A stretch of 64,000 nucleotides of DNA. Origin: Leptotrichia wadei. Its GTDB lineage: Bacteria > Fusobacteriota > Fusobacteriia > Fusobacteriales > Leptotrichiaceae. The position numbers were made by a program, and so were the translations under genes. The DNA lies in the NCBI RefSeq assembly GCF_007990445.1, contig NZ_AP019841.1, positions 372,001 through 436,000 on the forward strand, written 5' to 3'. Of the stretch, positions 26,865-31,995 are shown piece after piece (within the stretch, counting starts at the first letter, position 1; each line of letters opens with the position of its first letter). The notes under the pieces are model-generated. The model was not told the DNA's origin and did not search any database. It worked only from the letters and a program-made list of their open reading frames with translations.

Positions 26865-28703
26865 ATGTTTTACAGTAAAAAAGAAATACAAAAGTTAATT
26901 GACAATCTGGACATCGTTCAAGTGATTGGTGAATATGTTAATTTGAAAAAGGCAGGTTCAGATTATAAAGGGTTATCTCCGTTTAAGGAGGAAAAGACTC
27001 CTTCCTTCACAGTCAGTCCAGTAAAAAATATTTTTAAAGATTTTAGTACTCAAATTGGTGGAAATGTAATTTCGTTTTATATGAAAATTAATGACATTGG
27101 ATTTATTCAAGCGGTGGAGGAATTGTCACAAAAGTATAATATTCCGCTTAGAAAAAATAGGGGATATGAGGCAGTTAATCGGGAAACTGAGAAGAAAAAG
27201 GCTGTAAACAGGGAATATTTTGAAATAATAAAGGAAGCTCAGATATTTTTTAGGGAAAATATTGAGAAGTATGATGAAGCATTGGAATATATGAAGGAGA
27301 GGGATTTTTCGCTAGAGGAAATAAAAAAGTTTGGAATTGGATTTGCTTCAAGTTCACGAGATGATTTATTTCAATATTTACTAGAAAAAGATTTTCCAGA
27401 AGAAAAAATAATGGAACTGGGACTTGCCAAAAGAAATGAAAATGGAGAAATCTATGACAGTTTCAGAAATAGGGTAATTTTTCCAATTTACAATGCGGAT
27501 GCCCAAATTGTTGGATTTGGAGGTCGTATAATTGAGAAAAATACTAACTTGCCTAAATATCTTAATTCTCCAGATTCGCCTATTTTTAAAAAAGGAAATG
27601 AACTTTTTGGAATAAAGTACCGAGGGGAAAATATTAGGAAAAAAGGTTTTGCAATGCTGATGGAAGGTTATCTTGACGTGCTGACAGCCCAGAAACATGG
27701 GTTTGAAAATGCAGTAGCAAGTCTTGGAACGGCATTTACCGAAGAACAGGCGGAACTTTTGAAGAGATATACAGATAAGGTGCTGATTTCGTATGATAAT
27801 GATGAAGCGGGAAAAAATGCTATTGTAAAAGCTGGATATATTTTGAAAAAATATGATTTTGATGTGAAATGTCTGGTTATGGACGGGAGTGAGAAGGATC
27901 CTGATGAGTTTTTGAGAAAAAATGGGAAAAGGGCTTTTATAGAAGTTGTAAAAAAATCAGAAGAAATTTTTGACTTTTTGACAAGGGAAGCTTCAAAGGA
28001 TTTGGATCTGAATAATATAAATGGCGAGAAAAAGTTTATTGAAAGGTTAAAGCCATTTTTTTCAAATATCACGAATAATCTTAGTAAAAATTTATATTTA
28101 CAGCGATTGTCAGTTAATTTTGGAATTAATGACTTTGTATTGGAAGAATCGCTAAAAAATATATCAGTTGAAACTTCAAAAAGAAAAAAAAGAAAAGATC
28201 GTGGAAACCAGAAAGTCCAGTATAAAAAGTTAAAGGAAGACTTGAATATTGCATTGGAAGAGCAGACGCTTATGTACATTCTGGAATTTTACGATTCTGA
28301 AAGGAAAAGATGCGAAGAATTGTTAAATAAGGAATTTAGCCATTCTTTGTTTAATGAGCTGATTAAAAAGCTGAAACTTGTAAACTTTGATATAGTACAG
28401 CTTGATAAAAATGATATTAGCGAAGAAAGCAGGGAAGCTGTAACACAGTTAAAATTACGGGCAGATAAGGATATTAAGTATAAGGACAGCTATTTTAAAG
28501 ATAGATATTTTATGGAAGTCTATTCTGGATGGTTTGAGCGGGAAATAAGAGAGGAAAGTAAAAAATCAGAAGAAGAAAATAATAAAATAAAAAAAATTGA
28601 ATTAAAAAAATTGTTGTTAAAAATGAAAAATGTTAATAAAATTGAGGAAATAAAGAAATTATATGATGAATTTATATTGATAAGGAGACTGGGTTATGTC
28701 TGA
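26865..28703 (+). CDS. dnaG: DNA primase DnaG with substituted zinc-binding residues
   Basis: Makes RNA primers for replication. The N-terminal zinc-ribbon fold is recognisable ([32 protein letters not shown]), but the four ligand positions are S38, K41, D59 and T62 where the family has Cys, His, Cys, Cys. The TOPRIM catalytic core is intact: [11 protein letters not shown] (about 265) and SYDNDEAG (about 310). The last third, about 430-612, is the helicase-binding part. ATG follows GGAGG. It overlaps rpoD by 8 bases, as in the classic macromolecular-synthesis operon. Confidence 0.93.
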
Positions 28704-29874
28704 TAAAAAACAAAATTTAAAAAATAGTCTCGCAAATTTTATAAAACAGGCACGAGAGCAAAAAGTTGTAAGTTACGAAGAAATAAATTCTGTTTTGTCT
28801 ATTGGATTTTCAACTGAAAAAATTGATCAGTTAATAAAAAAGCTGACTGATGACGGTGTTCAAATCGTAGATACTATAAAGGAAAAGGAAGATTTGTTAA
28901 AAGTTCCTGAATCTTTGGAAGATATTGAGAAAATGGAATTATCAGATTTTGAGGATTCGCATGATGAATTTGTAGAGAGTGAAATCGACGATTCGGAAGT
29001 GGATAAATTATTGCAGACAGATCTATTGAAAATGGCTGAAAGTATGGATGTGGATGAGCCAATAAAAATGTATTTAAGAGAAATTGGGCAAATTCCTTTA
29101 CTTAGCTATGAAGAGGAAATTGATTATGCTCAAAGAGTTTTAAATGGAGAAGAGGAAGCCAAGCAGAAATTAATTGAATCAAATTTAAGACTTGTTGTCA
29201 GCATTGCAAAAAAACATACTAATCGTGGACTGAAAATGTTGGATTTAATTCAGGAAGGGAATATGGGGCTTATGAAAGCTGTGGAAAAATTTGAATACGA
29301 AAAAGGGTTCAAATTTTCAACTTATGCAACTTGGTGGATTAGACAGGCTATAACACGTGCGATTGCAGATCAGGGAAGAACAATAAGAATACCTGTTCAT
29401 ATGATTGAAACGATTAATAAAATTAAAAAGGAAAGCAGAATAATTCTTCAGGAAACTGGAAAGGAACCAACTGCAGAAGAACTGGCTAAAAAACTTGAGC
29501 TGCCTGTAGAAAAGGTAAAAAGTATTCTTGAAATGAATCAAGATCCAATCTCGCTGGAAACTCCAGTTGGAAGTGAAGAGGATAGTGAACTTGGGGATTT
29601 TGTAGAAGATGACAAATTTGCAAATCCTTATGATGCAACAACTAGAGTCCTTTTAAAGGAACAGCTTGATGAGGTGCTGAAAACATTGAATGATCGTGAA
29701 GAGATGGTACTTAGATATAGATATGGGCTGGATGATGGTTCTCAAAAGACTTTGGAGGAAGTTGGAAAAATCTTTAATGTAACGAGAGAACGTATCAGAC
29801 AGATTGAGGTAAAGGCATTAAGAAAATTAAGACATCCGAGCAGAAGAAAAAAATTGGAAGATTATAGGAGCTAA
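28696..29874 (+). CDS. rpoD: Primary sigma factor RpoD (sigma-70)
   Basis: A 392-residue primary sigma factor. Short region 1, acidic linker, then region 1.2 ([18 protein letters not shown]), region 2 with [17 protein letters not shown] (about 206-222), region 3 and region 4.2 [17 protein letters not shown] (about 363). The length resembles SigA of Bacillota. It recognises the TTGACA/TATAAT promoters common here. Start ATG overlaps the dnaG end. Confidence 0.97.
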
Positions 29875-29896
29875 AGTTATTATTTAGCTCCTTTTA
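29867..29896 (+). terminator. Terminator overlapping the rpoD stop codon
   Basis: GGAGCTAAA (29867-29875, includes the stop) and TTTAGCTCC (29883-29891), then TTTT. Confidence 0.85.
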
Positions 29897-30000: not shown

Positions 30001-30951
30001 ATGTTAAAAAAAATTTTTGAAGATATTAAAAAGAAGGGAAGTTTTAGTTTCGAGAAAATCATTGAAAATTACACAATGAGTGATGATGAGTTTTTTGAGT
30101 TTCTAAAATTTATTCATCTGGAAAATATTCCTGAAGTTAGAAATTCGACTGATGGAAGTGATTTTATTGTACTGGAGGATGAAAATGTTTTTATTGCGGA
30201 AAAAGACATTATAAAGTCATATTTGGAAAATATAAAGGAAAAATATGAGGAATCTGAGAAAAAGAGCGAGAGTGAAAGGGAAAATGAAGAATTAATTGAC
30301 AAGTATTTGAAAATCGCTGTAAAGGAAAGTCTGCTTTATTCAAAATATGGATTTTCATTTTTAGATACGGTTCAGGAGGCTACGCTAGGAATTATGTCGG
30401 GGCTGAATTACTATAATCAAATTATGGAAATTACAAAGGAGCCTGAATTTTTTATAAAAAATTTTGCTGTAAAATATATTTTGGAATTTCAGAAGAATTT
30501 ATTAAAAGATATTAAATCTTCAGAATTATCATATATTTTGTATTTGAAAGTAAAAGTGGATAAAAGCATGGGACTTTCAATGGAGGAAATAAGCAGGCAG
30601 ATGAATGTCTCAACAGAATATATCGAGCAGCTGGAAATGCTGTTTGATGAAGTTGAGCCTGAAGAATTGATGGAAAATACGCAAGTATTTGAAAAAGCTG
30701 ATAAAATTACACAAATGTATATTTTAGAAAATATTCCGAAAAAATTAAATTATTTGGATGAGCAAATTTTAGTCATGACTTACGGGCTTGATGATAAAGT
30801 TTATACAGAAAAGGAAATTGCGAGATCATTGAATATTGCAAAACATAATGTGAAAATTTTAAAGGAGAAGGCGCTTAATAAGCTTTCAATTGATATGATG
30901 AGAAATGATTTTGTGGAAAATAGCGAAGAGGCAAATTATACGGTAAATTAA
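30001..30951 (+). CDS. Divergent sigma-70-like protein next to rpoD
   Basis: A 316-residue protein that resembles RpoD at two places. SFLDTVQEATLGIMSGLNYY (about 118-137) matches region 2.2 ([18 protein letters not shown]). LDEQILVMTYGLDD with a following helix-turn-helix, IARSLNIAKHNVKILKEKAL (about 250-295), matches region 4. The DNA-melting segment of region 2.3/2.4 is changed: where RpoD has [11 protein letters not shown], this has FIKNFAVKYILEFQ, without the paired Trp. The N-terminal 100 residues are acidic and helical. I infer a paralogue of the neighbouring rpoD that keeps core-polymerase contacts but may not open promoters. ATG follows GGGGAG. Confidence 0.65.
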   Translation: MLKKIFEDIKKKGSFSFEKIIENYTMSDDEFFEFLKFIHLENIPEVRNSTDGSDFIVLEDENVFIAEKDIIKSYLENIKEKYEESEKKSESERENEELIDKYLKIAVKESLLYSKYGFSFLDTVQEATLGIMSGLNYYNQIMEITKEPEFFIKNFAVKYILEFQKNLLKDIKSSELSYILYLKVKVDKSMGLSMEEISRQMNVSTEYIEQLEMLFDEVEPEELMENTQVFEKADKITQMYILENIPKKLNYLDEQILVMTYGLDDKVYTEKEIARSLNIAKHNVKILKEKALNKLSIDMMRNDFVENSEEANYTVN

Positions 30952-31182: not shown

Positions 31183-31995
31183 ATGAAATTATGGCAAATA
31201 ATGGGAGAACTGCAGACAATTTTCAGTCCAAAAATAGCGGAAGAATGGGATAATGTCGGGCTTCTTGTGGGGGATAACACTAGAGAAATAAATAAAGTAT
31301 TATTTTGCTTGGATGTGACAGAGAAGGCTGTGCAGAAGGCTGTGGATAATAATGTGGATTTAATAATTTCACATCATCCAGTTATTTTTTCAGGATTGAA
31401 GAAAATTACAAATGAAACTGTGCATGGGAGAAAAATTTTAAAACTGATAGAAAATAAAATAGCAGTTTATTCAATTCATACAAATTCAGATTTTGCAATA
31501 AATGGACTAAATGATTTTATAATGGATAAATTGAATTTGGATGGTGAAAAAGTAATTTTTAATGAGCATGAATTTGAAGATTATAATCCAATAAAAAATA
31601 AAATGGAACATGTTCGTAGCGGACTTGCCAGAATTAAAATATTAAATGAAAAAATGAAACTTGGGGATTTAATAGAAAGAATAAAGGATTCGCTTGGGAT
31701 AAGCTATGTGAGATATGTTGGGAATAAAAATTCTTATGTGAGAAAGATTGGGCTTGTTACAGGTGGCGGAAGTTCGTTTATGTACGAAGTGGCAAATAAG
31801 ATAGATGTATTTTTAACTGGGGATTTGAGATACCACGAGGCTCTGGATGCTTTGGAGGAAGGGCATATTTTAGTTGATATTGGGCATTTTGAAAGTGAAT
31901 ATCTGTTTGTAGATATGATGGAGCAGGAAATGGGAAAATTTTTTAAAGGAGGAATGATACGTCATTTTGAAGATGAAGTATTTAAATTAGGATAA
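31183..31995 (+). CDS. NIF3-family dinuclear metal protein
   Basis: NIF3/YqfO family, sometimes annotated as GTP cyclohydrolase I type 2; true role uncertain. Metal ligands are visible: H64/H65 in ISHHPVIF, H99 and D103 in SIHTNSD, and the C-terminal VDIGHFESEY. At 270 residues it lacks the insert domain of B. subtilis YqfO. In Bacillota this gene also lies near dnaG-rpoD, so the position is conserved. ATG after AAAGG. Confidence 0.85.
   Translation: MKLWQIMGELQTIFSPKIAEEWDNVGLLVGDNTREINKVLFCLDVTEKAVQKAVDNNVDLIISHHPVIFSGLKKITNETVHGRKILKLIENKIAVYSIHTNSDFAINGLNDFIMDKLNLDGEKVIFNEHEFEDYNPIKNKMEHVRSGLARIKILNEKMKLGDLIERIKDSLGISYVRYVGNKNSYVRKIGLVTGGGSSFMYEVANKIDVFLTGDLRYHEALDALEEGHILVDIGHFESEYLFVDMMEQEMGKFFKGGMIRHFEDEVFKLG

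What the first reader, a model, noticed from the sequence alone, without database searches (positions are those of the whole stretch)
30001..30951. Divergent sigma-like paralogue directly after rpoD
It keeps a region 2.2-like core-binding segment and a region 4-like helix-turn-helix, but the promoter-melting aromatic segment of rpoD is missing, and region 1 is replaced by an acidic helical part. It could be an alternative sigma, or an anti-sigma decoy that competes with RpoD for core polymerase.
Basis: partly seen in the sequence, partly recalled or inferred. Interest (0 to 1): 0.6.

Follow-up and report, generated by a model that had tools for sequence, protein, structure and literature searches.

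The report
Promoter-blind sigma paralogue beside rpoD
Next to its main transcription-initiation gene rpoD, this Leptotrichia-like bacterium carries an old, strongly conserved copy that kept the part which grips RNA polymerase but lost the parts which read and open promoters; copies of it occur across the Fusobacteria, and its job has not been described in anything I could find.

Summary
The ORF at 30001-30951 is real: a 316-aa sigma-70-family protein, monophyletic with relatives in all 27 genera of its order held here and one genus of another order. The usual order is dnaG-rpoD-X-NIF3. X's link to NIF3 (stop codon usually overlapping the NIF3 start) is stronger than its link to rpoD. Ten sampled relatives (seven genera) are canonical-looking sigma factors. 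In Leptotrichiaceae, in a Fusobacterium-like group and in a third lineage, promoter-melting, -10 and -35 residues are gone, which needs about three separate changes on a species tree. The Leptotrichiaceae protein matches RpoD at 0 of 9 melting/-10 positions and 1-2 of 5 -35 positions, but at 4-5 of 6 core-binding region 2.2 positions. Its most conserved 12-mer is region 2.2. dN/dS is 0.059, so it is functional. I think it most likely binds core RNA polymerase as a non-initiating, sigma-like regulator. An alternative sigma with a wholly changed promoter code is the main rival. No binding data exist, so the mechanism stays open.

The parts
30001..30951 (+). X: sigma-70-family paralogue, 316 aa
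30001..30135 (+). residues 1-45, region 1.1-like N-terminal segment
   Evidence: hhalign X to canonical X, and canonical X to RpoD from the N-terminus
30196..30240 (+). residues 66-80, stub of region 1.2 (EKDIIKSYLENIKEK against [12 protein letters not shown])
   Evidence: alignment
30289..30411 (+). residues 97-137, regions 2.1-2.2 (core-binding); GFSFLDTVQEAT (residues 117-128) is the most conserved 12-mer of the family
30439..30519 (+). residues 147-173, position of regions 2.3-2.4; no melting or -10 contact residues, replaced by a conserved NFAVKYILEFQK helix
30571..30648 (+). residues 191-216, region 3-like HTH; the sigma finger that should follow is shortened (about 13 aligned residues against 26)
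   Evidence: (HTH_25, below its cut-off)
30715..30891 (+). residues 239-297, region 4; the 4.2 recognition helix lost R584, E585, R588 and Q589 equivalents
   Evidence: Pfam Sigma70_r4
28696..29874 (+). rpoD (392 aa, regions 1.1 to 4), the parent-type gene
29866..29892 (+). hairpin overlapping the rpoD stop codon, followed by UUUUA; conserved in Leptotrichiaceae; likely terminator or attenuator between rpoD and X
   Evidence: -13.7 kcal/mol, z -3.0; similar fold in the 15 loci folded
31183..31995 (+). NIF3/DUF34 gene, the partner to which X is most tightly linked across the class
   Evidence: Pfam DUF34_NIF3 E 4e-76; synteny

Best explanation
X is an ancient sigma-70 paralogue of RpoD, present across the class and held between rpoD and NIF3. 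In this lineage it has been turned from a sigma factor into a sigma-like protein that no longer reads or opens promoters in the RpoD way. Most likely it still docks through region 2.2 on the beta' clamp helices of core RNA polymerase, and region 4 may still touch the beta flap, without forming a promoter-competent holoenzyme. It would thereby tune how much core is available to RpoD or other sigmas, or hold core in a non-initiating state. Expression below RpoD could be set by the hairpin at the rpoD stop codon. Shown by computation: homology, monophyly, synteny, loss of DNA-contact residues, retention of 2.2, purifying selection. Inferred: core binding, lack of initiation activity, competition. 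My confidence in the identity part alone is about 0.95; the figure below is for the mechanism.
For: Sigma homology. X proteins form one clade apart from RpoD and other sigmas (100/100). Region 2.2 motif LD.VQEA matches 4-5 of 6 chosen core-contact positions, while melting/-10 match 0/9, extended/3.0 0/5 and -35 1-2/5. The best-conserved window in Leptotrichiaceae X is 2.2 (92 percent pairwise identity). Position 584 of the -35 helix shows eight different residues among close relatives and R441 is replaced by Glu, although dN/dS is 0.059. 4.2 recognition-helix net charge falls from +5 (RpoD) and +4 (canonical X) to +1.5 (Leptotrichiaceae) and about 0 (Fusobacterium-like); the aligned sigma-finger segment shortens from 26 to 13 and 7 residues. 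Loss of the canonical signature needs 3 changes on a RpoD+DnaG+NIF3 tree, and an X outside the order shows the same pattern with FLDLLQEGTIGL kept.
Against: No direct evidence of core binding. ECF sigmas also lack the RpoD melting aromatics (PMC8103513), so loss of those residues alone does not exclude initiation. Region 4 still passes the Pfam cut-off. In the most diverged relatives (g3, g4, g7) the 2.2 motif also decays, so core binding is not a class-wide constant. One Leptotrichia genome has X split by a tnpB-like insertion and one genome of g19 lacks it, so it is not strictly essential.
Confidence: 0.42

Rival explanations
1. X is a working alternative sigma factor whose promoter code has diverged so far that RpoD contact residues no longer apply, as in ECF sigmas; region 2 melts and region 4 recognises a different -35 element.
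For: Region 4 is matched by Pfam in 9 of 9 Leptotrichiaceae members. The replacement segment NFAVKYILEFQK is conserved. Ten sampled X proteins keep regions 2, 3 and 4. ECF sigmas lack the RpoD melting residues and still initiate (PMC8103513).
Against: The -35 contact position is hypervariable among close relatives; recognition-helix and 2.4 charges fall; the finger is shortened. The Fusobacterium-like group loses region 4 recognition altogether (0 of 14 match Pfam r4).
Confidence: 0.3
2. X is a sigma mimic that titrates an anti-sigma factor or another sigma-binding regulator (a PhyR-like logic) rather than core.
For: Degenerate sigma-like domains working this way exist (PhyR/NepR, PMC8103513). 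The fold is kept while DNA contacts are lost. Where 2.2 decays a non-core partner is easier to imagine.
Against: No receiver domain and no anti-sigma gene recognised beside X. In Leptotrichiaceae the core-contact segment is the most conserved part, whereas the review describes PhyR's core contacts as degenerated.
Confidence: 0.13
3. X acts with NIF3 outside transcription; the sigma fold is an exapted scaffold.
For: X-NIF3 linkage is tighter and wider than X-rpoD linkage: overlaps in most genera, persistence where rpoD has moved away, and in a genus of another order. His/Cys-rich linkers occur in some relatives.
Against: In Leptotrichia itself the X-NIF3 gap is 231 nt. Region 2.2 conservation points to RNAP. 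g7 keeps X although no NIF3 was found there.
Confidence: 0.08
4. X is a decaying duplicate of rpoD without function.
For: Fast divergence, loss in one genome of g19, and a split copy in one Leptotrichia genome.
Against: dN/dS 0.059 in ten Leptotrichia species, lower than NIF3 (0.082); intact in the other genomes opened, apart from those cut by contig ends.
Confidence: 0.03

Closest known systems
RpoD/SigA, group 1 sigma-70 (the neighbour gene)
   Same: Same order of parts: 1.1-like N-terminus, stub of 1.2, 2.1-2.2, region 3-like HTH, region 4
   Different: Lacks the 2.3 aromatics, 2.4 recognition residues, RIPVH segment, full finger and the RERIRQ -35 residues
ECF (group IV) sigma factors
   Same: Also lack the RpoD melting residues in 2.3
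   Different: X has region 1.1-like and region 3-like parts, is RpoD-like and rpoD-linked, and its -35 face is not conserved
PhyR sigma-like domain (alphaproteobacterial anti-anti-sigma)
   Same: Sigma fold with degenerate promoter-contact residues
   Different: PhyR has a receiver domain and degenerate core contacts; X has no receiver and keeps region 2.2
SigO-RsoA two-subunit sigma of Bacillus subtilis
   Same: Sigma domains of incomplete function
   Different: X keeps regions 2 and 4 in one chain; no split partner found beside it
Phage T4 gp33/gp55 (from memory)
   Same: Sigma-like proteins that bind core with partial sigma function
   Different: Phage proteins, no sequence test done here

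Membership tests
sigma-70 family (homology) | Profile match to sigma regions 2 and/or 4 | tested here: met
   Sigma70_r4 38.2 bits against a 24.1 cut-off; hhalign to RpoD over 225 columns
sigma-70 family (homology) | Sigma-2 fold | tested here: met
   VIA-align Z 12.8, rmsd 1.7 A over 79 residues to 8b3z; the model has mean pLDDT 59
group 1 sigma (RpoD) | Invariant 2.3-2.4 aromatics and -10 recognition residues | tested here: not met
   0 of 9 positions
group 1 sigma (RpoD) | -35 recognition helix residues R584, E585, R588, Q589 | tested here: not met
   NCBIfam RpoD models far below their cut-offs
group 1 sigma (RpoD) | Region 1.1 | tested here: inconclusive
   Transitive alignment only; no Pfam r1_1 match
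core RNAP-binding protein through region 2.2 | Conserved LDLIQEG-type clamp-helix motif | tested here: met
   4-5 of 6 positions in Leptotrichiaceae, best conserved window
core RNAP-binding protein through region 2.2 | Physical binding to core | not testable with these tools
   needs pull-down or cryo-EM
ECF sigma | Match to the sigma70-ECF model above cut-off, two-domain architecture | tested here: not met
   TIGR02937 24.4 bits against 42.9; region 3-like segment present
PhyR-type sigma mimic | Receiver domain plus adjacent anti-sigma | tested here: not met
   No receiver domain in Pfam; neighbours are dnaG, rpoD, NIF3

The most novel reading that the evidence does not exclude
A class-wide, chromosomally encoded, promoter-blind sigma paralogue, co-located with rpoD and NIF3, that binds core RNA polymerase as a built-in competitor or partner of RpoD, with the same loss of promoter recognition arising independently in several fusobacterial lineages.
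Probability: 0.4. Interest if true: 0.8.

Novelty: new variant of a known kind. Interest (0 to 1): 0.62.

Why it matters
If X binds core without initiating, Fusobacteria (including oral and cancer-associated species) would have a built-in, sigma-derived regulator of RNA polymerase next to their housekeeping sigma gene. That is a different way of controlling sigma competition from anti-sigma factors or 6S RNA. The graded series of relatives, from canonical sigma to promoter-blind protein, makes the evolution of such a conversion testable. In other fusobacterial genera the same gene sits between rpoD and NIF3, largely unremarked.

Tried and rejected
Considered: chance HTH similarity (rejected by profile, profile-profile and structural matches). 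Pseudogene (rejected by dN/dS 0.059). A local oddity of one genome (rejected: 27 of 27 genera of the order). A phage sigma (rejected by conserved synteny). Led nowhere: the search for related loci with the broad alignment A1 (no conserved stretch); with A2 it returned only 6 loci, so the AlphaFold alignment had 7 sequences and mean pLDDT 59. Promoter scan of the region gave no more sites than shuffles, and its terminator pattern missed the hairpin because the T run is short. Rfam found nothing. Paper searches found no description of this gene. The gene tree groups all degenerate forms together, but with long branches; the species tree contradicts a single loss. Because the X outside the order is also degenerate, a degenerate ancestor with a later canonical replacement inside the order is not excluded.

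Full report
WHAT IS THERE. The window reads dnaG (26865-28703), rpoD (28696-29874), X (30001-30951, 316 aa) and NIF3/DUF34 (31183-31995), all on the + strand. X has no second copy in its genome.

IT IS A SIGMA PARALOGUE. Pfam finds Sigma70_r4 in X at E 9.8e-10 but not region 2 or 3. phmmer aligns residues 91-296 with SigA structures at about 4e-5. Profile-profile comparison of nine Leptotrichiaceae X proteins gives E 2.8e-9 against RpoD, 9e-25 against canonical X relatives over residues 7-299, and 3e-20 against the Fusobacterium-like X group. The AlphaFold model is of modest confidence (mean pLDDT 59, seven sequences), yet the 50 Foldseek hits listed are sigma factors, and residues 89-169 superpose on a sigma-2 domain with Z 12.8, rmsd 1.7 A over 79 residues. 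The helical-bundle caution printed with that result applies; the sequence evidence is the main support.

IT IS CLASS-WIDE AND SYNTENIC. In all 27 genera of the order held here, an ORF related to X was located. It usually lies between rpoD and NIF3. In most genera its stop codon overlaps the NIF3 start, typically by 4 nt; in the window the gap is 231 nt. In g3, g4 and g5 X has left rpoD but remains directly upstream of NIF3. In one genus of another order (G097) an X-like gene overlaps NIF3 with no rpoD nearby. One genome of g19 (G068) lacks X, and the 0.8-Mb genome G096 showed neither a NIF3 match nor an X beside rpoD. X proteins form one clade against RpoD and two other sigmas (100/100).

RESIDUES. 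Positions in E. coli numbering, mapped through RpoD. Leptotrichiaceae X: region 2.2 set 4-5 of 6; melting and -10 set 0 of 9; extended/3.0 set 0 of 5; -35 set 1-2 of 5. Canonical X in ten loci from seven genera (g12, g13, g20, g24, g25, g26, g27; profile separation): 4-5 of 9 in the melting set, with Y430, W433 and W434 kept. Pfam by group: canonical X 10 of 10 with regions 2, 3 and 4; Fusobacterium-like X 14 of 14 with region 2 and none with region 4; Leptotrichiaceae X 9 of 9 with region 4 and 2 of 9 with region 2. Net charge of the 4.2 recognition helix is +5, +4, +1.5 and about 0 in RpoD, canonical, Leptotrichiaceae and Fusobacterium-like X; the aligned finger segment is 26, 26, 13 and 7 residues. 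The choice of contact positions rests on established sigma-70 structural knowledge, not on a tool.

REPEATED LOSS. On a tree of RpoD, DnaG and NIF3, canonical and non-canonical X need three changes; well-supported branches alone force at least two to three. Leptotrichiaceae, genus g23 (next to canonical genera) and the Fusobacterium-like group are separate. The X gene tree instead puts all degenerate forms together, which long branches can cause. The X outside the order is also degenerate, so the ancestral state is not settled.

SELECTION. Ten Leptotrichia species: median dN/dS 0.059 for X, 0.021 for rpoD, 0.082 for NIF3 (Nei-Gojobori, dS near 0.9, so approximate). The best-conserved 12-mer among 13 Leptotrichiaceae X is residues 117-128, GFSFLDTVQEAT, region 2.2; next come residues 240-254 (region 4.1) and 154-165. 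The -35 position 584 carries K, R, S, T, L, H, Y or E among these relatives. A functional protein whose -35 face is free to vary and whose clamp-binding face is not is unlikely to be a normal promoter-reading sigma.

Region 1 is not replaced. Residues 1-45 align with the N-terminus of canonical X, and canonical X aligns with RpoD from region 1.1 on. Region 1.2 is shortened but its first helix is recognisable. The acidic stretch (87-96) is a poorly conserved linker (14 percent identity).

EXPRESSION CLUE. A 10-bp hairpin overlaps the rpoD stop codon and is followed by UUUUA (-13.7 kcal/mol, z -3.0). It recurs in the 15 Leptotrichiaceae loci folded, some with changed stems. It may terminate or attenuate transcription so that X is made at a lower level than RpoD. 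This is inference.

HOW IT PROBABLY WORKS. Best reading: a sigma-derived protein that docks on core through region 2.2 without RpoD-type promoter recognition, and so modulates core availability or state (0.42). Rivals: an alternative sigma with a changed code (0.30), a mimic that titrates an anti-sigma (0.13), a function with NIF3 (0.08), a decaying copy (0.03). ECF sigmas and PhyR show that both directions are possible (PMC8103513). No data here separate core binding from initiation.

NOVELTY. I found no paper on this gene in the held library; most subscription papers are not held. The protein is a divergent member of a known superfamily, so 'new variant of a known kind'. The conserved, repeatedly promoter-blind paralogue beside rpoD is the surprising part.

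Noticed in passing
29866-29892: Hairpin overlapping the rpoD stop codon followed by a short U run, conserved in Leptotrichiaceae; possible terminator or attenuator between rpoD and X.
   Followed up: partly
L116 2308-3561 (G006): A TnpB-like (IS200/IS605-type) ORF inserted in X of one Leptotrichia genome, separating about the first 60 residues from an intact 253-aa remainder.
   Followed up: partly
L099 3072-3938, L104, L118 2588-3457, L119: X relatives in several Fusobacterium-like genera carry His/Cys-rich stretches (e.g. HEHEHHHEEGHECSCGH; HDHHKGHFHTHD) that look metal-binding, next to the metal-dependent NIF3 family.
   Followed up: no
L138 4358-5233 (G097): X-NIF3 pair in a genus of another order, preceded by a methyltransferase gene instead of rpoD, so X-NIF3 linkage may be older than X-rpoD linkage.
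   Followed up: partly
L094, L095, L097, L098, L106, L108, L109 and others, downstream of NIF3: A conserved secreted-looking protein (LGKINDYRNVFSEE...) follows NIF3 in most Fusobacterium-like genera.
   Followed up: no
G085:C1:186240, C6:25907, C6:4646, C6:8726: Four nearly identical 265-aa sigma-like ORFs in one genome, probably a mobile or multicopy sigma gene.
   Followed up: no
L047, L049, L034, L139, L140: In the most diverged family members even the region 2.2 motif decays while the gene persists, mostly upstream of NIF3.
   Followed up: partly
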